From: Stieleria varia
Lineage (GTDB): Bacteria; Planctomycetota; Planctomycetia; Pirellulales; Pirellulaceae
Assembly: GCF_038443385.1 (NCBI RefSeq)
Contig: NZ_CP151726.1
Span: forward strand, 62,001-126,000
Length of the DNA: 64,000 nt
Direction: 5' to 3'
Shown here: positions 1,821 through 12,650 of the stretch, one piece after another
Layout: every line of letters starts with the position of its first letter
How positions within the stretch are numbered: the stretch's first letter is position 1
The notes under the pieces: generated by a model
The model's database searches: none
Told to the model about the DNA's origin: nothing
What the model saw: only the letters and a program-made list of their open reading frames with translations
Position numbers and translations under genes: made by a program

Positions 1821-2849
1821 ATGGCCATCCAAGTCACCGCGTACTGTACTCATCGCAACCCACCCGAAATCACGTTTCCTCTGGACGCGATTTTGACTCG
1901 CGACCGCAGTGACCCCGGTTTGGTCAGCCATCTGGAAGACGTCATCGGCTACATCATGCAAGACGGCCAGCGAGAGATGACCGCGTCGCTCTACGGCGTC
2001 TTTCGTCATCTGCAACGTTGTCAGGTGCAGTATCAGTTCACCGTGGAGGGCGAGAACATCGAAGCGGTCGCGCCCTGGGCTTGGAAAGCCAACGCGATCG
2101 TGATGTTGCCCGACGGAGCCTTGCGTGATCCCAACGGCGCGGTCTTGATCGATCCGGATACCGGCTTACCGGATGATGAAGCGCAGATTCCGTTCTTGCC
2201 AGAAGCCCGACAGCGGAAAGCACAAAGCGAGGTCTTGCTACGCAACAGGTTGATCGAATTGCCTGACGCGTTGCCTCCGGTCGTGTGTGAACACGAAGTC
2301 GTTTTGAAATCGGCAGACGATGTCGCGTGGCGTGCGATCGCGTTGTTCATCGTCGCGGTACGCGCAGAATCGATTGCGTCGGGCAAACCGATCGACCCGG
2401 CGCGTCTGCAGGAGAAGTCGCCGCTTGCCTTTCAAGCCTTCACGCCGGCCGAGAAAGAGTTTGTGTTTTCCACCACTCCTGATCCGCAAACCGTCATCAA
2501 CTTTGCGTGGCGGTACGAAGCACTCTTTGTGTTGCAGTGGGCGCTCGGATTGCATCCGCAATTGCCTTTTCCCAATGAAATCTGCGATGTCCCCTTGGTC
2601 GCCCAAACCATGATGACTCAAAGCAATCGAGATCTGATACAGAACGCGAAACTGCGAGCGGTGTCCGAGATCTTAGATGCGTTGGATCAGAATTATCGTC
2701 TTTTGTGGGCGGCGCGAGACGCGAGCGGCCGACAAGTCGACCCGCCATCCCAAATCGACGGCGGCGTGATCAGCGAACGTCAACACGCCTTGAACTGGAT
2801 CACCGGTTTCGAAGACGCCCCCTGGGACGACGTCGACATCCCGTCGTGA
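1821..2849 (+). CDS. DUF4272 family protein
   Basis: A 342-residue soluble protein of unknown function. The central and C-terminal part matches the DUF4272 pattern as I know it: AWRAIALFIVAVRAES, then EKEFVF, then FAWRYEALFVLQWALGL and CDVPLVAQ. The start is the ATG 3 bases after the pheT stop, so it is probably co-transcribed with pheT. The last 255 bases of the gene recur as a detached fragment at 7167-7421, with 10 differences in 255 positions. No signal peptide or membrane segment is seen. The family assignment is by motif memory; the function is unknown. Confidence 0.85.
   Translation: MAIQVTAYCTHRNPPEITFPLDAILTRDRSDPGLVSHLEDVIGYIMQDGQREMTASLYGVFRHLQRCQVQYQFTVEGENIEAVAPWAWKANAIVMLPDGALRDPNGAVLIDPDTGLPDDEAQIPFLPEARQRKAQSEVLLRNRLIELPDALPPVVCEHEVVLKSADDVAWRAIALFIVAVRAESIASGKPIDPARLQEKSPLAFQAFTPAEKEFVFSTTPDPQTVINFAWRYEALFVLQWALGLHPQLPFPNEICDVPLVAQTMMTQSNRDLIQNAKLRAVSEILDALDQNYRLLWAARDASGRQVDPPSQIDGGVISERQHALNWITGFEDAPWDDVDIPS
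2594..2848 (+). repeat. 255-bp direct repeat, copy 1 (inside the DUF4272 gene)
   Basis: The segment from cttggtcgcc to the stop codon tga is repeated in the same orientation at 7167-7421. The copies differ at 10 positions, and half of the changes are silent at codon third positions. Together they bracket about 4.3 kb of minus-strand genes. Confidence 0.93.
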
Positions 2850-2928
2850 GTTGGCAGGATATACAGCACGCAAACTGATTTGAATTCTAGGAACAAGTAT
2901 TTGTCGATGTGCAATCAGAGCAAGTCAG

Positions 2929-3135
2929 CTAAGGTGACGCTCGGTAGCGTCCAACAAATCGAAAAATCGGCTCTCCTTGTGATCCATCGCTCTGCGTCAA
3001 CTCTTCCATAAAAAACACCTTGACATCAACAACCGACGAGTCATGTGACTCATTCCATCGGTCACCAAAGTACTTGCACATCGCATCATTCAAGCGATCG
3101 GAATTCCTGCCCCAAACTGCCTGGGCATAGGACCT
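2929..3135 (-). pseudogene. C-terminal remainder of the HTTM gene beyond an in-frame TGA
   Basis: Continuing in the same frame past the TGA at 3136-3138, there are 68 further sense codons up to a TAG at 2931-2929. The translation begins RSYAQAVWGRN and continues DAMCKYFGDRWNES, which resembles the usual end of HTTM proteins, where a short W/Y-rich segment follows the last membrane helix. The codon that became TGA would most naturally have been TGG (Trp, as in YWRSY), a single base change. It could be a real nonsense mutation or an assembly error. Confidence 0.75.
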
Positions 3136-4278
3136 TCAATAGCGATTCTTCATATGCGTTCTCAGGTTGTGCGGTTTTTCAAGGATGACAGTGTTATTTG
3201 TCCACAGATCAATCTCCGAATCATTATCCAACTTGGCAGCCAAGATAATCCAGCGATCAGATATCATCGGCGACGGGGCAAACATCTTCCATCTTTGACC
3301 AAGCCCCAAAATCAACTCAAGCCTAGAAATTTCTGCTGGGTACCGATCGGGCAACCAAATCGTGCGAATGTTCCCGCCAACAACGAGGAGCATTGAAACC
3401 ACTAAGATGCAACGCTGCAAAAGTGTGATGTGCTTAGAATCGTCTGCAAATGAGAGTGGCTGAACGCAGAACAATGTTCCCCATGAATTGTCAGGAATAA
3501 GCGGGATCCAAGCAATGCACATCACGATTGAAAAATTCCACAGACTCAATGTCAATCCAATTCCAATGTGGAAGCTCCAAAACACAAGTACAAGGATTCT
3601 TCGCAGGTTTCCACGGCATACGGGCACAAAGATTAGAAAGGCTCCGATTCGCTCTATAGCCAGGGTTGCTACTGTAAGAGCCGTTGTCAGTGTTGACTGT
3701 TTGCTGAGCCAACTTCCGAAAGGTGACGTAATGTGCTCTAACAACAACGAATCTCTTACTGCTGTGAAATCAGTTGTCCAGGCAGTTCCTGATTTTGTCA
3801 TGCCATTCGAGAAGTAGATCAAGAAGAGCTGCATCAAGAAGGCACCAGAAGCCAACTTTGACAGACGTTGAGTACCATCAAGTGGGAGAAATATTGCCCA
3901 GAAGAAAAGCAGACGCAGGACGCTATCTCCTCCATTGATGGTAAATGGACAACGGCAATGAAGTGAAAGATAGAGAACAAAGAGTGCAACAGCACTGGCT
4001 CGAGGATAATAGCCAATAGCAAACGCGATGCTAATTGCCGCCATTATTAGCAGCATAGAATACGCGAACGCAACAGACCCTCCGCATAGCCAGACAGAGA
4101 CGCTGGCAAGGTCATGTGCCTCACTTTCAAGAAGCACCGATCGAGGCAGTACGCTTTCATCCGAACAGAATGCCGTGATCGATGAAATCCGTGACAATAG
4201 ATCGCAGCAAGAGAATAAACCCAACGCAATTCGAAAGACGATCAACGATCTTTGGCTGATGTCAAGTGGACTTATCAT
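3136..4278 (-). CDS. HTTM (vitamin K-dependent gamma-carboxylase-like) membrane protein, probably truncated
   Basis: A 380-residue polytopic inner-membrane protein with about eight hydrophobic segments. The N-terminal RIALGLFSCCDLLSR, the central FTINGGDSVLRLLFFWAIF and FFSNGMTKSG-like region (YFSNGMTKSG), and the late WKMFAPSP are hallmarks of the HTTM family. This family includes vitamin K-dependent gamma-carboxylase homologues, but the bacterial members lack a proven reaction. The frame ends at TGA 3136-3138, yet coding sequence clearly continues to 2929, so the protein is probably missing about 68 residues. It is the last gene of a four-gene minus-strand unit, 61 bases after the preceding exported protein. 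No function is claimed beyond membership of the family. Confidence 0.85.
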   Translation of the reverse strand: MISPLDISQRSLIVFRIALGLFSCCDLLSRISSITAFCSDESVLPRSVLLESEAHDLASVSVWLCGGSVAFAYSMLLIMAAISIAFAIGYYPRASAVALFVLYLSLHCRCPFTINGGDSVLRLLFFWAIFLPLDGTQRLSKLASGAFLMQLFLIYFSNGMTKSGTAWTTDFTAVRDSLLLEHITSPFGSWLSKQSTLTTALTVATLAIERIGAFLIFVPVCRGNLRRILVLVFWSFHIGIGLTLSLWNFSIVMCIAWIPLIPDNSWGTLFCVQPLSFADDSKHITLLQRCILVVSMLLVVGGNIRTIWLPDRYPAEISRLELILGLGQRWKMFAPSPMISDRWIILAAKLDNDSEIDLWTNNTVILEKPHNLRTHMKNRY

Positions 4279-4339
4279 TTACGCCACCGGATTGACACGA
4301 CGGGATTCTCCTCACTCTCTTGCTGGAGATTCGACCTCG

Positions 4340-5410
4340 TTACTCACTTTTGTCACTGAGGCCACTCGCTCCTGCCTCATTCGGATCTAGCAGTTTTCGG
4401 AACTCATCAGCTTGATCGATCATCGAAAAATCGAATACGGACTCTGTGAGCGGCTGATTCACTGACACCCAATGAAATCGCTGGTCTCGTTGGACCATTA
4501 CGTCCATGAAATTCTCTTTCAGAAAAGCACGAATCTTTTCTGCCCGGTTCTCACCATCAATCTGCTCGACTTGTTTGATCAGGTCGTCAGGCGGGAGACG
4601 ACCTTGGCGATCCAAGTATTCACCAACGACTTTCTCGGGCAGAAAAATTCCCTTATGTGACTCCCAAACGATCTCGTCTCTTCCAAGTATCGTCGTTTCA
4701 GTGTTCTGAGGAGACCTCCTTCTCCATTGAACTTCGACTGGCATCAATGAGTCCTTAGAGAAACTCCACCGAAAGCCAGAATCGTTGTCAAAGAATGCCT
4801 GTAGAACAACGTTCTCGCCTTCCTGGGCGATTGCCGATACGTCGGTTGCGGTTCGAGGATAGACATCAATCAGGTTTGCCATATCTTCTGTCCATGTTCG
4901 AGTGCTCCCCCAACCTAACTTCATGAAAAGCAAGACGCGAAAATCAGGTACGGTATGATTGTCAAAAACCACTCGAAAATCCTGAACTTCTCGTGGCGGC
5001 AGATGGCGTTCAGGTGTGTCGAAGGTTCGGAACTTGCCCTCTTTAACGATGAATCCCGTCTCAATGGACTGCTTGTAAGGACGATCTCCAAGCGACTCTT
5101 TCACTGATGTCTTGGCGTACACAAAGCGGTTGGCGTCCCAATCAAAGATGAGACGTTCGTACGTCGTTCTTGTGAAACCGGCAACAATCGCCGGCTCTCT
5201 GATTTCGTCCGTGCGAACCAAGACATCGAACTGCTTCAACGGCAACCAGTTGGTGCCTTGCGCTTGCAAGAATGAGTCCAACTCCTCGCGAACGTCTCCG
5301 TAGGCGGCCGTGGGGGCGTGTGCGGCGTAGATCAAAAAAGCCAATAGGAATGCAGCGTCGACATAGAGCTTTCCCATTGTGTTCCATGAAGCGTTTAACA
5401 TGTTTTGCAT
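4340..5410 (-). CDS. Exported hypothetical protein
   Basis: A 356-residue protein with an N-terminal hydrophobic segment (AAFLLAFLIYAAHA) followed by AYGDV, consistent with a cleaved signal peptide; ATG starts at 5410, 5401 or 5377 are all possible. The body is mostly beta-rich and polar, with no motif I recognise. A repeated style of text (FIVKEGKFRTFDTPERHLPP, DEIVWESHKGIFLPEK) resembles outer-membrane-lipoprotein-like or planctomycete exported hypothetical proteins. It lies between the small cysteine-rich protein (51-base gap) and the HTTM gene (61-base gap), so it is likely part of the same operon. Base composition looks more AT-rich than the flanking chromosome. Confidence 0.75.
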   Translation of the reverse strand: MQNMLNASWNTMGKLYVDAAFLLAFLIYAAHAPTAAYGDVREELDSFLQAQGTNWLPLKQFDVLVRTDEIREPAIVAGFTRTTYERLIFDWDANRFVYAKTSVKESLGDRPYKQSIETGFIVKEGKFRTFDTPERHLPPREVQDFRVVFDNHTVPDFRVLLFMKLGWGSTRTWTEDMANLIDVYPRTATDVSAIAQEGENVVLQAFFDNDSGFRWSFSKDSLMPVEVQWRRRSPQNTETTILGRDEIVWESHKGIFLPEKVVGEYLDRQGRLPPDDLIKQVEQIDGENRAEKIRAFLKENFMDVMVQRDQRFHWVSVNQPLTESVFDFSMIDQADEFRKLLDPNEAGASGLSDKSE

Positions 5411-5461
5411 TTTGACGATCTGTATTTACGTGTTTCTGAATGTGACGTCCAACAGCACGCC

Positions 5462-5776
5462 TCAATCCTGTTCGCTGACACACTGAACTGTTGCACCCGA
5501 ACTGAAGCTTGACTGACCAAACGAAGTGTGATCGGCAACGGAAACAGGCCCTCTAAGGATGCGGTTCTTATCAACGGGACATCGGGCACCGAGGTAGATG
5601 CCCAAGACTGGATCATACATATCCTGGCAGTCGACACCGTTGCATCCATACGAGCTTAAACCCGTAAGTTGTGTGCAAGTGGCTTGGCCTGTCGTGTAGC
5701 AGGTCTGACCACTTGCGATTGAAGTTCCCAGAAAGAAAAGGGTGCCCATAAGCACGAAGATTGACTTGGAATTCAT
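5462..5776 (-). CDS. Small secreted six-cysteine protein
   Basis: A 104-residue protein with a clear signal peptide (MNSKSIFVLMGTLFFLGTS, cleavage probably after ASG near residue 23). The mature part of about 80 residues has six cysteines at positions 26, 34, 45, 50, 66 and 99, which fits three disulfide bonds. The text YDPVLGIYLGARCP is unusual, and I do not recognise a family. It lies 42 bases after the DUF1573 gene and 51 bases before the next, so it is probably in one operon with the HTTM protein. Being small, secreted and next to a membrane enzyme, it could be a modified substrate, but that is inference. Confidence 0.7.
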   Translation of the reverse strand: MNSKSIFVLMGTLFFLGTSIASGQTCYTTGQATCTQLTGLSSYGCNGVDCQDMYDPVLGIYLGARCPVDKNRILRGPVSVADHTSFGQSSFSSGATVQCVSEQD

Positions 5777-5818
5777 TGTTTTGATGAGCCTTTTGACAGG
5801 AAGAAATATGCGAGCTTG

Positions 5819-6901
5819 TTACTCGCCCTGACTCTGTTGAGAAAAATGGATTGGCGAACTCACTTCATACGCACCGTCCTTTGTCTTGATATTCCAATGA
5901 ACCAAACGTTGTCCTTGCTCTAAACTCCCCAGATTCTGCTTAGCGATTGTCAGCCTTACTCGAAGCACTCCAGGCGACAGGATCTGAACCTGCGGACGCA
6001 AGGTCTTTCCGCCAAAACTCGCGTCAACGATTGCATCAAACTTGCCATCATGTTCGGCTTTCTCACTATTGATGCGAATCAGTGCTGTGACTTCAAAAGC
6101 GATGTCTGACGTAGCGCGGGCGCGAAGGATTCCAGGATATACACTCACAGGCAAGACTCGCTTCATTACGCAAAAGCACACCGTTTCAATTCCAGTGAGG
6201 GTGTCAATGCACGATATTTCTCCAGACTGTTGCGAACCCGCCATTTTGGTTTCATCAACTTCGAGCTCCAGATAGACAGATCCATCTTTTTTGACGATTG
6301 CAACCTTGATGTCACCTAAGGACTCCGCAACATGTGTTGTCAGGTTCTCAGCGGCCACGGGAGCAGTGACGAGTAGTGGTAGAGTGAAAAAGTTTTTCTT
6401 TTTCTCAGGGTCGACATCAAGTACTACTCGCGCGTCTTTGAAGGTCAGAATTCCGCCGATGTTGTACGAGACTTTTACCTGGATGCCTTCAAGACCGGAT
6501 GGCTTGCTAGACTCAAGGAAAACAACCCAAAATGCCGAGGGTTTCTTCATCTGCTTTTCAACAGGGGCAGTGAATTCAAGCAGTAGATCTGATCCTGCAT
6601 CTAGCTTGAGAGCGCTCACGTCGGCCCCAAAACACGAACAGCTCGTTTTTACACCCTTGAATTCAAGGTTGTTATTCGTCGCATTATGAATCGTTAGCTT
6701 AATGCGGTATTTTTTGTTACGATTAAGCTGTCCCGCATCTAAGTCGATCAGGTACTGGCCTGACCGGTACTCTGGCGTCGCAGTGAATTCAAGGGTCTCG
6801 GCTTCTTCAGCATCTTTTGATGCTGAGAGAGTTCCTGCTAAGAGCGTCGCAAAAAGGATTGGCGACAGAAGTAGGCGCAGCAGTACTGAAGACGGTTTCA
6901 C
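5819..6901 (-). CDS. DUF1573-like exported protein
   Basis: About 360 residues from a GTG at 6901 (protein begins VKPSSVLLRLLLSPILFATLL, a signal sequence). A longer ATG start at 6994 is possible but would run through a poly-G tract, so I prefer the GTG. The KKYRIKLTIHNATNNNLEF region followed by VKTSCSCFGAD is the DUF1573 hallmark: an Ig-like fold with a conserved SCSC-type cysteine pair. The C-terminal half looks like a second Ig-like domain. It is the first gene of the four-gene unit that ends with the HTTM protein. Function is unknown; the family is common in planctomycete exported proteins. Confidence 0.75.
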   Translation of the reverse strand: MKPSSVLLRLLLSPILFATLLAGTLSASKDAEEAETLEFTATPEYRSGQYLIDLDAGQLNRNKKYRIKLTIHNATNNNLEFKGVKTSCSCFGADVSALKLDAGSDLLLEFTAPVEKQMKKPSAFWVVFLESSKPSGLEGIQVKVSYNIGGILTFKDARVVLDVDPEKKKNFFTLPLLVTAPVAAENLTTHVAESLGDIKVAIVKKDGSVYLELEVDETKMAGSQQSGEISCIDTLTGIETVCFCVMKRVLPVSVYPGILRARATSDIAFEVTALIRINSEKAEHDGKFDAIVDASFGGKTLRPQVQILSPGVLRVRLTIAKQNLGSLEQGQRLVHWNIKTKDGAYEVSSPIHFSQQSQGE

Positions 6902-7166
6902 AATGTTTGCCCCGGATGAAGTTGATCTGACTTGCCGGTGGCCCCATCTCAAGAGACCACACGCCTCGATCTCGATGTTACGGGGGGGGGGCACGTGTCA
7001 ACAAATAAGTTTGTCTTTTCATATTTTTTTTGGGTGGTCTTGTGCGGGTAGGTGCTTCGCTGTGTTTTGGTTCACCGCGGCTTCATCAAGTAGTGAATTA
7101 CAAATCACACCGTTGCCATGCCACTGGTTCCAGCAAAACGAATAGAGCAACATTTGCGTTTTTTGA
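6902..7166. other. Gap at the right edge of the cassette with a 10-G tract
   Basis: No gene is supported here. It contains a run of ten G at 6982-6991 upstream of the DUF1573 gene, followed by an AT-rich stretch (atattttttttgggtgg) that may hold its promoter. The right edge is the abrupt start of the DUF4272 fragment at 7167. Confidence 0.5.
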
Positions 7167-7424
7167 CTTGGTCGCCCAAACCATGATGACTCAAAGCCAT
7201 CGAGATCTGATGCAGAACGCGAAACTGCGAGCGGTGTCCGAGATCTTAGATGCGTTGGATCAGAATTATCGTCTGTTGTGGGCAGCGCGAGACGCGAGCG
7301 GCCGACAAGTCGACCCGCCATCCCAAATCGACGGCGGAGTGATCAGCGAACGTCAACACGCCTTGAACTGGATCACCGGTTTCGAAGACGCCCCCTGGGG
7401 CGACGTTGATGTTCCGTCGTGAAT
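7167..7424 (+). pseudogene. Detached 3' fragment of a DUF4272 gene (direct repeat copy 2)
   Basis: The last 84 codons and the stop of a DUF4272 gene, with no upstream part. It aligns with 2594-2848 with 10 differences: amino-acid changes are N to H, I to M, D to G and I to V, and the remainder are silent. This pattern suggests it diverged while still part of a functional gene rather than after duplication. An ATG-started frame at 7030 runs into it, but its first 46 codons have no protein character. Confidence 0.9.
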
Positions 7425-7435
7425 TAAAACGTAGG

Positions 7436-7828
7436 TCATGCGGAGCATGACACAATGTGGCTTGCCGTTTGACCCGCAGCCGAAGGCGTAGGAGACACTA
7501 CCAACCGGATGACACGGCAGCGTCGGATGCCGCTTCCGCCTACGCCTTCGGCTACGGGTCAAACACTAATGAGGTCAGTGACGCCCGGCTGGTTTGCCGA
7601 GGTGACCGGATTGTGTCATGCGGAGCATGACCTACAGGCTGCAGGCTTCACGCCGTTTGACCCGCAGCCGAAGGCGTAGGAGACACTACCAATCGGATGA
7701 CACGGCAGCGTCGGACGCCGCTTCCGCCTACGCCTTCGGCTACGGGTCAAACACTACTGAGGTCGGTGACGCCCGGCTGGTTTGCCGGAGGTGACCGGAT
7801 TGTGTCATGCGGAGCATGACCTGCAGGC
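7436..7828. repeat. Two tandem ~180-189 bp repeats with internal palindromes
   Basis: Copies at 7436-7615 and 7616-7804 plus a partial third at 7805-7828. Each begins with the short palindrome tcatgcggagcatga. It then contains a long inverted repeat whose arms run from gtttgacccgcagccgaagg to the facing ccttcggctacgggtcaaac, and ends with ggtgaccggattgtg. The tail also occurs alone at 9659-9707, and the inverted repeat recurs in variant form at 29254-29351 and 44883-44981. Confidence 0.88.
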
Positions 7829-7937
7829 TCTCGTCCCAACCTGTCATTCGCGAGATTGTCGCTTGACTTTCCAAGTCGATAGCGGGCACCAATATGTTTT
7901 CGTGCTTCGTCAAATCTTGGTGAGTCGCTGATGCAGG

Positions 7938-8918
7938 TCATTTTCGCGACTGCAAGATGTCGATCAATGTCGTGACGTCACCCTCTGCAACAACCCAGAC
8001 TCGCATCCAGTGGGGATTGTAGTAAACCCAGCCGGATTTCGAGCCCCCACGCGACCATTGCAAGAAGATTAAATCGGCTTGCAAGTTGAGACGACCGTTG
8101 TTGTACACCTTGTTGACGTAGTGTTCGTACACTTCGTCTTTGCCAATCGCCGAGGCACCTTCTGTGGGAAAAATCTGAAAGTCATATTTGACTCCGTAAT
8201 CCGTCACATTCGGCTCGTCCTGGCGCTCAAAGACCTCTCGAAAGTGGAAGGTCGCCAGCCCACTTTCATGTTCAACCAGCAACACACTCCCTTCGTAGGG
8301 AACAGAAGCTGCAACATTTCCATCAAATGAAATGGGATCTGAATCGGGTCCCTTAAAACGCTTTTCCGCCTCCCGATACTGTTTTTGAATCTCAGCGTCT
8401 GGAGTCAGAAAGCTTGCTAGGTCGACAGCTTTCTGATTCTCCTCGTCAAGGAACCGATGCGCTACGACAGGATGCAAGGACAGCTCGTGAGCGTCGAAAA
8501 CGAGCTCACCTTTCCCATCTTGCAAATAATGCCAATGCAGTTGATACGGACCGATCGATATCTCCGAGCCACTCGCTTCAACTTTTCCGTCCTTCAGTTT
8601 TGCAAACAGCTTGCCGTTTCCGGTCGTCTCTGACTTGGCTCCACGTTCCAGATAACGCCATTGGAATGGCACCCATACGATCCCATTGCCGGTCGCGTTT
8701 GCCCGTTCATCAATATTTTCTAACAGCAATGCGGCAGTACCTGCGTCTCCTGTGATCACGTAGAGACGCTGCCTGATTGGGTCGGCGTGAGTCGGTGAGT
8801 GAATCAATCCGGGGGACGTTTCATCAGCTTTGCTGTTCGTTCCCCGCAAGGCCATCACAGTGATGCAGCTCGAGATAACGAGCCCAAAAAGGAAAGGCTG
8901 TTTTGTGACGGCTTGCAT
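7938..8918 (-). CDS. Exported hypothetical protein
   Basis: A 326-residue protein with an N-terminal signal-like segment (FLFGLVISSCITVMAL). The middle contains short beta-rich motifs such as IGPYQLHWHYLQDGKGELVF and VPYEGSVLLVEHESGLATF; the end reads GGSKSGWVYYNPHWMRVWVV. I do not recognise a domain. It stands alone between two repeat-rich intergenic regions, with no near neighbour on its strand. A real gene is likely because the frame is long, has a signal peptide and has normal amino-acid composition. Confidence 0.7.
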   Translation of the reverse strand: MQAVTKQPFLFGLVISSCITVMALRGTNSKADETSPGLIHSPTHADPIRQRLYVITGDAGTAALLLENIDERANATGNGIVWVPFQWRYLERGAKSETTGNGKLFAKLKDGKVEASGSEISIGPYQLHWHYLQDGKGELVFDAHELSLHPVVAHRFLDEENQKAVDLASFLTPDAEIQKQYREAEKRFKGPDSDPISFDGNVAASVPYEGSVLLVEHESGLATFHFREVFERQDEPNVTDYGVKYDFQIFPTEGASAIGKDEVYEHYVNKVYNNGRLNLQADLIFLQWSRGGSKSGWVYYNPHWMRVWVVAEGDVTTLIDILQSRK

Positions 8919-9239
8919 TGGTAAAACTCATTCGTTTTGCACGGGGCGCTACGTGGCTCCGATTTGGATCAACGCCCGAGACATGTGTCCACGCATTGCA
9001 ACATTGTATCTGGTGCTGGATGACTCGGCTTGCCACGATAGAAATCGAGCCGCCTGCTCGGGGAGATTACGTTCAATCCCTAGTAGCTCAACGTCTCTAA
9101 GCGGATGACGCTACCAAACGCCGTGACGCGTGAGCGGCCGGGTATTGCGCGCACTGAACCCATTTCATTCCGTGAAACCCGTGACCTGACAGTCAGCGGC
9201 TTAGAAAGCAACGGTTTCACGTTGAATTTCACGCAAAAT
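8919..9239. other. Intergenic region upstream of the exported hypothetical gene
   Basis: About 320 bases that should hold the promoter of the minus-strand gene at 7938-8918. Short frames occur on both strands but none has protein-like composition. Confidence 0.4.
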
Positions 9240-9310
9240 ACCAGCACGACGCGCAAGCGAGTGAATGGAGGAACAGTAAGACGATTCACTCGCTTGCGCG
9301 TCGTGCTAGT
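9240..9310. repeat. Dispersed palindrome, arms agcacgacgcgcaagcgagt
   Basis: An inverted repeat with about 25-bp arms around a 19-base centre. The same palindrome, slightly diverged, is found at 30623-30687, and a half copy lies at 42806-42831. It lacks a T run, so it looks like a REP-type repeat rather than a terminator. Confidence 0.85.
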
Positions 9311-9419
9311 AAAGACGAGGAAAATGGTTGAAGCGATCGAAGTACTAAGCCGGACGCTATTGCGTTGCGGCTGATGTGCCACGGTAACGTCCTCATTTCA
9401 ACATAAAACAAGTTACTAC

Positions 9420-10036
9420 GACCACTCACGTCGTAGAGGAGGACATCCCACACAATATCCGCGGCTTGCGGCCTGTTGATTTAATCGAAATTGGGAACGC
9501 AAGGGTGAGCCGTGGGCCGTAAGGCACCGGGCAATGCGGTAGGCCCGGCCGCTTACGCGTCGCGGCTCACTAAATCAACAGAACACTTGCCATGGGCTTC
9601 GTCAATACCATGAGGCCCGCGGCTAGTGCCTTGCGGCTCACTCAATCAGCGGTCTCGTTCGGTGACGCTAGGCTGGTTTGTCGAGGTGACCGGATTGCGT
9701 CATGCGGGGAACGTGAAAAGAATTGTTGCTGCATATGACCGCGAAGCGGTCTCAGACGGTAGCCGGCGATAGAGCGCAGCGATCATCGCCGGTTGAGTCG
9801 GCCTGTCGCGAACCGACCCCGCAGGGTGTCGCAGCCCAGATTCCGAGAAGTCTGCGACACCCTTCGGGGTCGATTCAACAGGGTCGTCGCATACCACGGG
9901 TGCGCCTTCGGCGACCCGTGGCTACCATCTGCGATCCCTCGCGGGATCCAATTTCGCACTCACGAATCAGTACTCATACAGATGGGTAAACAAAGACGTC
10001 AGCAAAACATTTCACGTCCCGAGCATGACCTACCCA
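9420..10036. repeat. Repeat-rich intergenic region
   Basis: No credible gene. It contains a family beginning near ggcccgcggctagtgccttg (9610-9655), whose close relative is at 62520-62565. A solo copy of the 7436-type tail lies at 9659-9707. Several short hairpins lie in a row between 9735 and 9955 (for example gaccgcgaagcggtc and gatccctcgcgggatc). Confidence 0.7.
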
Positions 10037-12202
10037 TTACAGCCGGATGACCTGTTGGTCGGCAACCGTTTCGGCGTTTTGATGGCAGCGAGCGGCAAGC
10101 TCTAACTTGACGTGCCAGCAACCGTTTTCGTCGCCGGTGATCCACCAGTGCGGCAGCACACAGACGCTTTGGTGCACCAACTCAAAACCGGCTTCGCTCT
10201 GGCTGACCGTTTCGATCGGGAACGCCCAGATGCTGCTGGGACGATCCAATCCCAACGACACGTCGATGTCTAGCCAGCGGTCTGAAAGGTTCAATCCGGA
10301 CACGTCGTGCAAGTCCAGTTTTTCACCGAGTTGCCCCATCCGATTGCCGGAGACATCGCTGAAGTAGCGATCGTCCGCACCGGAGGGCAGTCCCGAGAAA
10401 TTCATCTCGATCGCGAAGTGCAACTGTCGGTCCCGCGGCAGGTTTTCCAGCAAGTAAGTGATCTCCAGACTTTCGCTACCGGCAAGCATGGTGACCGCCT
10501 TGGTCAACTTGATCGGAATGCCCCACGCATTGCCTTCGCGGTGCATCTGAACTTGCACGCGATCTTCGCCGCGGCGGAGTTTGGTCTCAAATGGCAGGGC
10601 AACGAAATCGCCCCGCTCGGGAGCCTCACCGCGCGAAACCGTATCAAGCGACGCGTCGTTGTCGTAGAAGTGATCCATCAGGCTCTTGCGGGCGTAGCGA
10701 TCGTACTGCAGGCGTTGATCCAGGCCCTCTTGTTTGAACACCACGCGGTCATGAATGCTGGCGACGTTTTCGCCATCGACCGACGGCCCGGCGAGCACTT
10801 TACGGTGATAACTTTCAGGCCGCCGTTGCAAGGTTGCGAGCAGATTGTGACTGATTTCTCGCACATCCAACTCATACATACGGCCGCCCATGCCTGGTGC
10901 CACCCAAGCACACAGCTTGTCGTTGCTCAAGCGGACTTCCTGCAATCCGTCAAAGTTGTAATCGTCCGCCGTGGCGTGAAGCGCGCCGTGGTTGCCGCCC
11001 CCGATCCGCTCCAGCAAGTTGTCCGCGGCGATCAAATGCTCGTAGACAGCGTTGCGCAAGTGCGGCAGGTAGATCCCGCCGAACGCACCGTGCCAGTACG
11101 GACAGTTGCATTGACCGCGATAAAGATGATCGCGAATGACGGCCAGCTCACCGGCATCGACGCCTGCCGATTCGGCATCCGCCAATCGACGACTGACGTG
11201 CATCATGCGAGCGTACATCTCGTTGGTTTCGGGATACTTTGTCTTGAAGTTCCGCCAGAATCCGCCGCGAATGAATGTCTTGAGTGTCTCCCAGTGCTCA
11301 TCGTGCTCCATCGCGTGCACGACATCGTCGAGCTTGTTCTGCGATTCAACCGGCAGCGCCCACTCGGTCATCTCGCGATAGCTGCAATCGGGCAAGTAGA
11401 CCTTGCCAGCGGCGGGAGTGCTCTCGACGGCTTGCGACAACGTGATCGTGTGCAACCATTCGGCGTTCTCGGTCAGCGCACCAAAGAAATCACGCAGCCA
11501 GCCTTTCTCATAGACGTGCACCTTGGTGTCCGGCCATGTGCCAAATTTTTCACCGTCGTCACCGAACGTCAGCACACCACCGGGAGCCTGATGCGACATT
11601 TCACGACAATGGTCGATCGTTGCCGCAACGCTCTGGAACGGAATCGTGTAGCGAAGGTGCTCCGAGCCCGGGAATACCCTCAGCATGCGACCTTGGTCTT
11701 CTGTGACATAGTATCCGGTGAGTTGGTCAGCGGGGATGCCTGCGGCGCGAAAGTGATAGTCATCCAACACCGTATACCGAATGCCCGCATCCACGACATC
11801 GCTCGTCAGACCGGACTCCCAGACGCGCTCGGGAGTCCACATGCCATGCGGACGAACGCCCAAATTGCGTTCCAACCAAGCACCGTACGTTTCAATCTGG
11901 CCGACGCGATCGCGACTGGGCAACATGGTGAGGATCGGTTCGTACTGAGGTCCGCCGACGATCTCGATGCGACCCGATTCGATCAGCAGACGCAGACGAT
12001 CCAGGTACTCCGGGTGACGCTGGGCGATCCACATCATCAGCGGACCGGAGGTGTGCAGCGAAATGTTCAACCGGTCAAAAGGCTCGAACACATCCAGAAA
12101 CGGCAGATAGCTGTCCTGATAGGCCTGCTCGAAAACACCGTCGAAATTTCCGATCGGTTGGTGATTGTGCAGGACCAAGCAGAGATGGATGTGCGGCATC
12201 AT
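10037..12202 (-). CDS. GH57 family alpha-glucan enzyme (4-alpha-glucanotransferase/amylase type)
   Basis: A 721-residue enzyme acting on alpha-1,4-glucans, cytoplasmic (no signal peptide). The five GH57 regions are visible: HNHQP (residues 12-16), the GGPQYEP region near 84-90, MWTPERVWES with the likely nucleophile Glu125, and TFGDDGEKFG with the likely acid/base Asp216. The 91-residue spacing of the two catalytic residues equals that of the Thermococcus litoralis 4-alpha-glucanotransferase (E123/D214). The C-terminal half is the beta-sandwich typical of these enzymes. I chose the ATG at 12202 (MMPHIHLCLVLHNHQ) over the longer frame start at 12397, whose extra 65 residues have no family match. 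The precise specificity is not settled. Confidence 0.88.
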   Translation of the reverse strand: MMPHIHLCLVLHNHQPIGNFDGVFEQAYQDSYLPFLDVFEPFDRLNISLHTSGPLMMWIAQRHPEYLDRLRLLIESGRIEIVGGPQYEPILTMLPSRDRVGQIETYGAWLERNLGVRPHGMWTPERVWESGLTSDVVDAGIRYTVLDDYHFRAAGIPADQLTGYYVTEDQGRMLRVFPGSEHLRYTIPFQSVAATIDHCREMSHQAPGGVLTFGDDGEKFGTWPDTKVHVYEKGWLRDFFGALTENAEWLHTITLSQAVESTPAAGKVYLPDCSYREMTEWALPVESQNKLDDVVHAMEHDEHWETLKTFIRGGFWRNFKTKYPETNEMYARMMHVSRRLADAESAGVDAGELAVIRDHLYRGQCNCPYWHGAFGGIYLPHLRNAVYEHLIAADNLLERIGGGNHGALHATADDYNFDGLQEVRLSNDKLCAWVAPGMGGRMYELDVREISHNLLATLQRRPESYHRKVLAGPSVDGENVASIHDRVVFKQEGLDQRLQYDRYARKSLMDHFYDNDASLDTVSRGEAPERGDFVALPFETKLRRGEDRVQVQMHREGNAWGIPIKLTKAVTMLAGSESLEITYLLENLPRDRQLHFAIEMNFSGLPSGADDRYFSDVSGNRMGQLGEKLDLHDVSGLNLSDRWLDIDVSLGLDRPSSIWAFPIETVSQSEAGFELVHQSVCVLPHWWITGDENGCWHVKLELAARCHQNAETVADQQVIRL

Positions 12203-12650
12203 GTTTGTTCTAGCTGACAGCGTGAAAGGATTGATTGCAAAAGGCGTGCGTTTCCGTTCGAACGTCGATTCTACGCAACGCGGGCACTTTTCCGAATGAC
12301 CACAACGCCTTGCTTGCAGCGATCGCACCGAATGGGGCCGGTCGTTGTGGTAAAGGTTCACCCAGCGGGATCGCACTGCCCAACCGTTAGACTCCATCGA
12401 TTAGAGACGTATCGGCAGGGTGAGGCCACCGAGTTGACTTGATTTGCCGGCCCGAGTTTCACAAAGCGGAAACAGGGGCAGATTGAGTGCCACAGTTTTT
12501 CAGCATTGGATTTCGGGAGACTTCGCCTGGGCTGTTCAATGATTGGGATTGGCAAAGCGTTTGGCGGAGCACCCTATCGACTTGAAAAGTCCAGCGACGT
12601 TTACGCAAGATTCATTCCTTGCTTCCGCCGGGCTTGCCCCGGTTCGGAGC
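12203..12650. other. Intergenic region upstream of the GH57 gene
   Basis: About 450 bases without a supported gene. It presumably carries the promoter of the minus-strand GH57 gene. Small frames here have no coding character. Confidence 0.4.

What the first reader, a model, noticed from the sequence alone, without database searches (positions are those of the whole stretch)
2594..7424. Gene cassette bracketed by two copies of the 3' end of a DUF4272 gene
About 4.3 kb of minus-strand genes lies between the intact DUF4272 gene and a detached 255-bp copy of its last 84 codons. The copies differ at 10 positions, half of them silent, so the fragment seems to come from a functional relative rather than from local duplication. 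This is the arrangement expected when an element enters the 3' end of a gene and brings a replacement end. No integrase is seen, so homologous exchange between strains is an alternative.
Basis: partly seen in the sequence, partly recalled or inferred. Interest (0 to 1): 0.75.

Follow-up and report, generated by a model that had tools for sequence, protein, structure and literature searches.

The report
Foreign operon duplicating a gene's end
A small foreign-looking set of genes has been added at the end of an ordinary bacterial gene, leaving that gene whole and a spare copy of its last part stranded on the far side; this is an unusual trace of gene transfer, not a new kind of system.

Summary
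A 259-bp direct repeat (2594-2852, 7167-7425; 11 mismatches, 10 coding) brackets 4.3 kb whose GC (48.1%) is below all 278 equal windows sampled from the same genome. All 13 genus relatives held have one complete DUF4272 gene and no detached 3' end; none has this operon at the thresholds used. The arrangement is specific to this lineage in that sample.

The cargo is a four-gene minus-strand operon: long DUF1573 protein, Cys-rich secreted-looking peptide, 356-aa secreted-looking protein, and an HTTM-type membrane protein broken by an in-frame stop. The first three resemble a patchy Pirellulaceae module.

No tyrosine recombinase matched in the window. The interval is also a rearrangement breakpoint: the usual next gene is at 2.04 Mb, and a gene normally 0.84-1.08 Mb away is now the neighbour.

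Best reading: additive insertion (single-crossover type) of DNA carrying the gene tail plus operon. Local duplication during break repair, or an element that lost its integrase, are not excluded. The "half silent" argument does not decide. No strain-level empty site was available.

The parts
1821..2849 (+). Intact DUF4272 gene (342 aa), directly after pheT
   Evidence: PF14094 221 bits, cut-off 27; pheT-DUF4272 order in the 12 genus loci read
2594..2852 (+). Repeat copy A: 3' end of the intact gene, to 3 bases past the stop
2853..2928 (.). Left junction and spacer between the DUF4272 repeat and the HTTM remnant
   Evidence: sequence
2929..3135 (-). In-frame tail of the HTTM gene after its premature stop (68 codons and a stop; only a weak match, E 0.02, to the end of one of 7 relatives)
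3136..4278 (-). HTTM/SdpB-like membrane protein, 380 aa, ended by an in-frame TGA (probable pseudogene)
   Evidence: PF05090 23.8 bits, below cut-off 27.7; 24-30% identity over most of its length to 7 of 7 planctomycete proteins compared, best E 7e-45
4340..5410 (-). Secreted-looking protein of 356 aa, third gene of the recurring module
   Evidence: no match at E <= 1e-5 in 59 relatives nor at E <= 1e-3 in 391 other genomes of the phylum; profile match E 4.2e-15 to five module proteins
5462..5776 (-). Small Cys-rich protein (104 aa) with a signal-like N-terminus
   Evidence: weak similarity to the peptides at the same place in two other modules, E 0.034 for one, aligned cysteines
5819..6994 (-). 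Long DUF1573 protein (391 aa as called; true start probably further in), first gene of the operon
   Evidence: PF07610 23.7 bits, below cut-off 26.1; relatives over most of its length
6995..7166 (.). Right spacer, upstream of the operon, joined to codon 258 of the displaced gene end
7167..7425 (+). Repeat copy B: detached 3' end of DUF4272 (84 codons, stop, 3 bases)
7426..7812 (.). Dispersed intergenic repeats directly right of copy B (136-nt unit, two copies here, 33 matches in a 1.6-Mb sample of the genome)
7938..8918 (-). Neighbouring gene of unknown function (326 aa, third-position GC 0.56); not bracketed
10037..12397 (-). GH57 glycoside hydrolase; far from DUF4272 in relatives, so a rearrangement breakpoint lies between

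Best explanation
A foreign four-gene operon was added at the 3' end of the pheT-linked DUF4272 gene in one lineage of the genus. The incoming DNA, probably a circularised or linear fragment from a close relative, carried the last 84 codons of DUF4272 next to the operon. It recombined through that tail (single crossover, or homologous at one end and illegitimate at the other). This gave, from left to right, a complete hybrid DUF4272 gene, the operon, and the displaced original gene end, which is now decaying. Shown: the repeat, the foreign composition, the absence from 13 relatives, the operon's kinship with a recurring module, and the rearranged neighbourhood. Inferred: donor, direction and crossover mechanism.
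For: 259-bp direct repeat, two copies only in the genome. Homology stops 3 bases past the stop codon, so the insertion keeps one full gene. Cargo GC below all 278 control windows. Single complete DUF4272 gene and no detached end in 13 of 13 genus relatives; no match there for the 356-aa protein, the peptide or the HTTM protein, and only distant DUF1573 relatives elsewhere in three of the 13. The operon's first three genes resemble a patchy module: long DUF1573 protein in 58 of 241 family genomes, this one included. The detached copy carries private residues at 3 of 3 polarisable sites. No tyrosine recombinase in cargo or window. Circularised DNA integrating by single crossover, and one-sided illegitimate integration, are described in E. 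coli (PMC3240628, abstract).
Against: No donor with DUF4272 next to this cargo was found. The sequence to the right of copy B is not the gene that follows DUF4272 in 12 of 12 genus loci, so the event was not a clean insertion into the ancestral order, or a second event came before or after it. Mismatches cluster at the 3' end of the repeat (6 of 11 in 26 bp, P 0.009; 16-bp window P 0.011; 40-bp window P 0.064), which a simple donor-recipient difference does not predict. Silent/replacement counts do not exclude a local duplication.
Confidence: 0.5

Rival explanations
1. Local duplication during repair of a broken chromosome: a staggered break at the end of DUF4272 was filled in and joined to captured foreign DNA, duplicating 259 bp of the target; the detached copy then decayed. 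The break belongs to the same upheaval that moved the next gene away and brought GH57 in.
For: The interval 2850-10036 is a rearrangement breakpoint: the CDP-alcohol phosphatidyltransferase gene follows DUF4272 in 12 of 12 genus loci but lies at 2.04 Mb here; GH57 lies 0.84-1.08 Mb from DUF4272 on the same strand in 4 of 4 single-contig relatives, here 7 kb away and convergent. The resolvable amino-acid changes are all in the detached copy. Silent share compatible (P 0.08-0.25).
Against: Needs the insert to start by chance 3 bases past the stop codon (selection for an intact gene softens this). A 259-bp target duplication is far longer than transposon target duplications known to me (recalled). 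The silent share is on the high side.
Confidence: 0.28
2. Remnant of a site-specific element like the e14 prophage: a recombinase inserted it into an att core at the left end of the repeat, the element brought a replacement gene end, and the integrase gene was later lost or acts from elsewhere.
For: Layout matches e14 in icd (163-bp displaced end, element supplies the gene end; PMC6379469 passage; 10 silent and 2 replacement differences, PMC2973815 passage). The first 31 bp of the repeat are identical. 24 tyrosine recombinase domains in the whole genome. A 29-bp and a 53-bp direct repeat flank two other module loci (L169, L166, not examined further).
Against: No integrase or room for one among the cargo ORFs; no PF00589 match in the window, the nearest 18 kb before it. 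No insertion at this site in 12 genus loci. None of 5 other module loci is bracketed by a duplicated gene end. No phage family among the six proteins scanned. Serine recombinases were not searched by family.
Confidence: 0.17
3. Assembly error placing a second gene end and cargo here.
For: No reads were available to check.
Against: Single-contig, 99.99% complete genome; the two copies differ at 11 sites, so they are not one sequence assembled twice.
Confidence: 0.03

Closest known systems
e14 prophage in icd of E. coli K-12 (replacement 3' gene end)
   Same: Element lies in the 3' part of a protein gene, the gene stays whole with the element-side end, and a displaced original end of similar size remains on the far side (passages of PMC6379469 and PMC2973815).
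   Different: e14 is a 15-kb prophage that integrates site-specifically and excises (same passages); here 4.3 kb of non-phage cargo, no recombinase found, excision unknown, and a rearranged neighbourhood.
Homology-facilitated illegitimate recombination / single-crossover integration of circularised DNA
   Same: Homology on one side suffices to add DNA to a chromosome (abstract of PMC3240628); that it leaves repeats of the homologous stretch is my inference.
   Different: Described in experiments with plasmids; here inferred from anatomy only, donor unknown.
Recurring Pirellulaceae module: long DUF1573 protein + (Cys-rich secreted peptide) + secreted protein of about 340 aa
   Same: Same gene order and strand; third gene homologous; third gene found downstream in 25 of the 30 best loci.
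   Different: The window copy is highly diverged (16-21% identity), has an added HTTM gene, and is the only one of 6 inspected loci bracketed by a duplicated gene end.

Membership tests
Integrative element with replacement gene end (e14 type) | Target gene kept whole, displaced original end on the other side | tested here: met
Integrative element with replacement gene end (e14 type) | Own integrase | tested here: not met
   four cargo ORFs, none a recombinase by Pfam; no PF00589 match at E <= 1e-5 in the window. Serine recombinases were not searched by family
Integrative element with replacement gene end (e14 type) | Identical att core at both ends | tested here: inconclusive
   31 identical bases at the left end of the repeat, but identical runs of 53, 61 and 62 bases occur elsewhere in it
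Integrative element with replacement gene end (e14 type) | Empty site in close relatives | tested here: inconclusive
   single complete gene in 13 of 13 genus relatives, but pheT only 65-72% identical and the following gene differs
Integrative element with replacement gene end (e14 type) | Excision as a circle | not testable with these tools
   needs the strain
Additive homologous insertion (single crossover / one-sided) | Insert flanked by direct repeats of the homologous stretch | tested here: met
Additive homologous insertion (single crossover / one-sided) | Donor molecule with that stretch next to the cargo | tested here: inconclusive
   the 356-aa cargo gene is in none of 59 relatives; no strain-level data held
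Pirellulaceae DUF1573 module | Long DUF1573 protein followed on the same strand by the third-gene family | tested here: met
   hhalign of the window protein against five others E 4.2e-15, order; five of the 30 loci, the window's included, had supplied the profiles
Pirellulaceae DUF1573 module | Cys-rich secreted peptide between the two | tested here: met
   104-aa Cys-rich ORF at that place; sequence kinship with other peptides weak (E 0.034); not a constant feature of the module (8 clear cases of 30 by eye)
SdpB export family (TIGR04033) | Score above NCBIfam cut-off | tested here: not met
   15.8 bits against 178.4
Pfam HTTM (PF05090) | Score above Pfam cut-off | tested here: not met
   23.8 bits against 27.7; relatives over most of its length exist

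The most novel reading that the evidence does not exclude
The cargo belongs to a horizontally spreading class of Pirellulaceae operons for a Cys-rich secreted peptide (DUF1573 protein with a C-x-C motif, peptide, secreted partner, sometimes a membrane protein). It can enter chromosomes without any recombinase by carrying along the end of a host gene, so the gene stays whole and the entry is selectively silent.
Probability: 0.1. Interest if true: 0.6.

Novelty: new member of a known kind. Interest (0 to 1): 0.35.

Why it matters
It is a clean example of DNA gain at a gene end that spares the gene, with no tyrosine recombinase in the window, at a chromosome-rearrangement breakpoint. It also leads to a recurring, apparently unnamed Pirellulaceae module (long DUF1573 protein, Cys-rich secreted peptide, secreted partner). 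My searches of the held open-access library for DUF1573 with Planctomycet* and for DUF1573 with cysteine-rich found no paper, nor did one for DUF4272; subscription papers are mostly not in that library. The module, rather than the bracket, may be the more rewarding lead.

Tried and rejected
Tandem duplication of [gene end + cargo]: rejected as a simple event, because copy B is not followed by a second cargo copy; homology ends 3 bases past the stop. Transposon: no transposase among the cargo genes and none of 14 weak inverted pairs lies at both cargo ends. tRNA-associated island: no tRNA in the window. Phage or defence cargo: no PHROG hit at E <= 0.01 and no PADLOC hit at E <= 0.1 for six proteins. 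A recurrent gene-end bracket mechanism in this genome: 1.904 Mb (20%) scanned for direct repeats of at least 100 bp, over 85% identical, 0.8-20 kb apart, overlapping an ORF of 150 aa or more; judged by eye, the DUF4272 pair is the only host gene end around non-mobile cargo. Two pairs at 2.594-2.607 Mb also share ORF ends, but lie in a repeat-rich stretch with an integrase and were not followed. Other module loci: 0 of 5 bracketed by a duplicated gene end, but a 29-bp (L169) and a 53-bp (L166) direct repeat do flank two of them; not followed. An attempt to find the empty site of the G002 module through a neighbouring gene failed, because that gene was found in only 5 of 14 genus genomes. Peptide matches in G018 and elsewhere in G000: judged chance. 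C-x-C motif of the DUF1573 protein predicting the peptide: no association (Fisher P 0.62, 30 loci; its automatic peptide calls, 12, include some that look spurious). HTTM as a module partner: not seen in nine HTTM loci read by eye. A single inversion as the cause of the rearrangement: none of the genes held around the displaced gene matches the 1.5 kb after GH57 in relatives, so more than one event is likely. Fold of the 356-aa protein: useless (mean pLDDT 34), so no fold search was made. PDB sequence search with the DUF1573 protein: no hit. A first comparison of DUF4272 relatives used unturned minus-strand loci (relatives' rows) and was discarded; one search replaces it. Paper searches and the abstract of PMC3784515 gave context that I did not use, apart from passages of PMC12884075.
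Full report
WHAT IS THERE. The window begins in pheT and continues into a complete DUF4272 gene (1821-2849; PF14094, 221 bits). The last 84 codons of that gene, its stop and 3 further bases occur a second time at 7167-7425 (259 nt, 96%). These are the only two copies found in the genome, a single contig of 9,719,866 bases. To the left of copy B the sequence is not DUF4272. To the right of each stop the two sequences part after three bases (one mismatch, then TT).

THE CARGO IS FOREIGN IN COMPOSITION. GC of 2853-7166 is 48.1%. In 278 windows of equal size from 1.2 Mb of the same genome the mean is 56.3% (s.d. 1.6) and none is as low. GC at third codon positions is 0.48-0.54 in the four cargo genes, against 0.68-0.71 in pheT, the 5' part of DUF4272 and GH57. 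The gene right of the bracket (7938-8918) is intermediate (0.56).

THE CARGO IS AN OPERON RELATED TO A RECURRING MODULE. On the minus strand, in order: a long DUF1573 protein (5819-6994), a Cys-rich secreted-looking protein of 104 aa (5462-5776), a protein of 356 aa with a signal-like start (4340-5410), and an HTTM/SdpB-like membrane protein (3136-4278); the spacers are 42-61 bases. The HTTM gene is interrupted by an in-frame TGA, after which 68 codons stay open. Pfam scores for DUF1573 and HTTM are just under the curated cut-offs, but both have relatives over most of their length. The 356-aa protein had no match at E <= 1e-5 in 59 relatives, nor at E <= 1e-3 in the other 391 genomes of a 392-genome phylum sample.

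The DUF1573 search of 40 genomes found five places outside this genome. In all five the gene is followed on the same strand by a protein of 337-345 aa. The 356-aa protein matches a profile of those five at E 4.2e-15 over 283 columns. In two of the five, a secreted-looking Cys-rich protein of 143-147 aa sits between; its similarity to the window's peptide is weak (E 0.034 for one). A profile of the six DUF1573 proteins finds matches in 58 of 241 genomes of the family, this one included; this genome also has a second, more distant one at 8.216 Mb (at most eight candidates per genome were scored). Loci were returned for 30 of the best matches; 25 of the 30 have the third gene downstream. Five of those 30 had supplied the profiles. 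By eye, 8 of the 30 carry a clear Cys-rich peptide and 3 more carry pieces of one. HTTM is not a regular partner as far as seen: nine HTTM loci, read by eye, have other neighbours. So the cargo is a strongly diverged copy of a patchy Pirellulaceae module. What the module does is unknown; a secreted peptide with dedicated secreted partners is an inference from gene content only.

RELATIVES. The nearest held genomes belong to one genus, which I take to be Stieleria in the GTDB sense from the record names and recall. They are distant: pheT 65-72% and DUF4272 52-59% identical. All 13 have one full-length DUF4272 gene and none has a detached end of it at E <= 1e-10; two have additional, remote DUF4272 proteins. 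None has a match to the 356-aa protein, the peptide (E <= 0.01) or the HTTM protein (E <= 1e-8). Two have a distant DUF1573 module elsewhere, and the profile search adds a third genus member. The insertion is therefore specific to this lineage in the sample held, but no genome close enough to show a strain-level empty site was available.

A REARRANGEMENT BREAKPOINT. In 12 of 12 genus loci whose downstream side could be read (the 13th lies at a contig end), a CDP-alcohol phosphatidyltransferase gene (PF01066) follows DUF4272 on the same strand, 89-1619 bp away. In this genome it sits at 2.042 Mb among other genes. GH57, here 7 kb downstream and convergent, lies 0.84-1.08 Mb away on the same strand in all four single-contig relatives (G001, G002, G011, G012; positions). 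So at least one large rearrangement ended between 2850 and 10036. A single inversion is not supported (which saw only 1.5 kb after GH57). The stretch right of copy B holds dispersed repeats (33 and 34 matches in a 1.6-Mb sample for two of them), which could have mediated later rearrangement.

WHICH COPY CHANGED. Against 15 relatives, three of the four amino-acid differences can be polarised, and all three are private to the detached copy: I273M (relatives I or V), D336G (D in 15 of 15), I340V (I in 11, T in 4); at 269 neither state occurs in relatives. Some silent differences look derived in the intact copy (for example CTT, in 1 of 15 relatives). Six silent of ten is improbable if both copies drifted freely (P 0.014-0.045). 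It is not improbable if one copy was constrained and the other free from the start (P 0.08-0.25), nor if both were constrained. Mismatches cluster at the 3' end (6 of 11 in 26 bp, P 0.009; P 0.011 and 0.064 for windows of 16 and 40 bp), as expected if gene conversion between the copies, or a mosaic donor, evened out the rest; this was not tested further.

MECHANISM. The layout (complete gene, cargo, displaced end) is the product expected when DNA carrying a gene tail plus cargo is added by one crossover in that tail, or by homologous exchange at one end and illegitimate joining at the other. The abstract of PMC3240628 describes one-sided integration and single-crossover integration of circularised linear DNA in E. 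coli. The same layout is produced by site-specific elements such as e14 in icd: 163 bp of icd displaced and the element supplying the end (PMC6379469, passage), with ten silent and two replacement differences between the two ends (PMC2973815, passage). Genomic islands often reconstitute the gene that they enter (PMC12884075, passages). Against an element here: no recombinase in the cargo, none of 24 tyrosine recombinase domains of the genome in the window (nearest 18 kb before it), no insertion at the site in 12 genus loci, no duplicated gene end around five relatives of the module, although short direct repeats of 29 and 53 bp flank two of these. A third route, capture of foreign DNA at a staggered break with duplication of the target, fits the breakpoint and the decay of the detached copy and cannot be excluded. 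I weigh additive insertion 0.50, element 0.17 and break repair 0.28.

HOW COMMON. A scan of 1.904 Mb of this genome (20%) for direct repeats overlapping coding ORFs showed, by eye, no second host gene end bracketing non-mobile cargo. Two pairs in a repeat-rich region with an integrase at 2.59-2.61 Mb share ORF ends and were not followed. It looks like a single event, not a habit of the genome.

VERDICT. The specific mechanism and the foreign origin of one gene end are unproven. The kind of structure is known; what is less usual is the absence of a recombinase, and what is new to me is the module inside.

Noticed in passing
window 4340-6994; loci L165-L169 and L170-L199: Patchy Pirellulaceae module: long DUF1573 protein (C-x-C motif in 25 of 30 loci), sometimes a Cys-rich secreted peptide, then a secreted-looking protein of about 340 aa; five of the latter have no Pfam family above cut-off.
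   Followed up: partly
L166:4548-4600 and 10037-10089; L169:9290-9318 and 12483-12511: Short direct repeats (53 bp, 83%; 29 bp, 93%) flank two other copies of the module; dispersed intergenic repeats or traces of entry.
   Followed up: no
window 3136-3138: In-frame TGA near the end of the HTTM gene; 68 further codons remain open, so the gene is probably a young pseudogene.
   Followed up: yes
window 6982-6991: Run of ten G just upstream of the probable DUF1573 start; a possible slippage site or only a composition oddity.
   Followed up: no
window 7464-7812 and 9100-9400: Dispersed intergenic repeat families, 33 and 34 matches in a 1.6-Mb sample of the genome; the first lies directly right of the detached gene end.
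   Followed up: partly
window 2850-10036 against relatives: Rearrangement breakpoint: CDP-alcohol phosphatidyltransferase gene at 2.04 Mb instead of next door, GH57 brought from 0.84-1.08 Mb away.
   Followed up: partly
G000:C1:43110-43703 and three further places: Tyrosine recombinase domains of identical or nearly identical score at four places (43110, 6974387, 8365934, 8776999), suggesting a multicopy element.
   Followed up: no
G000:C1:55769-57724: Tandem array with a unit of about 196 bp, roughly ten copies, some 4 kb before the window.
   Followed up: no
G000:C1:2592600-2607000: Cluster of diverged, partly overlapping repeats with an integrase; some repeat pairs share ORF ends.
   Followed up: no
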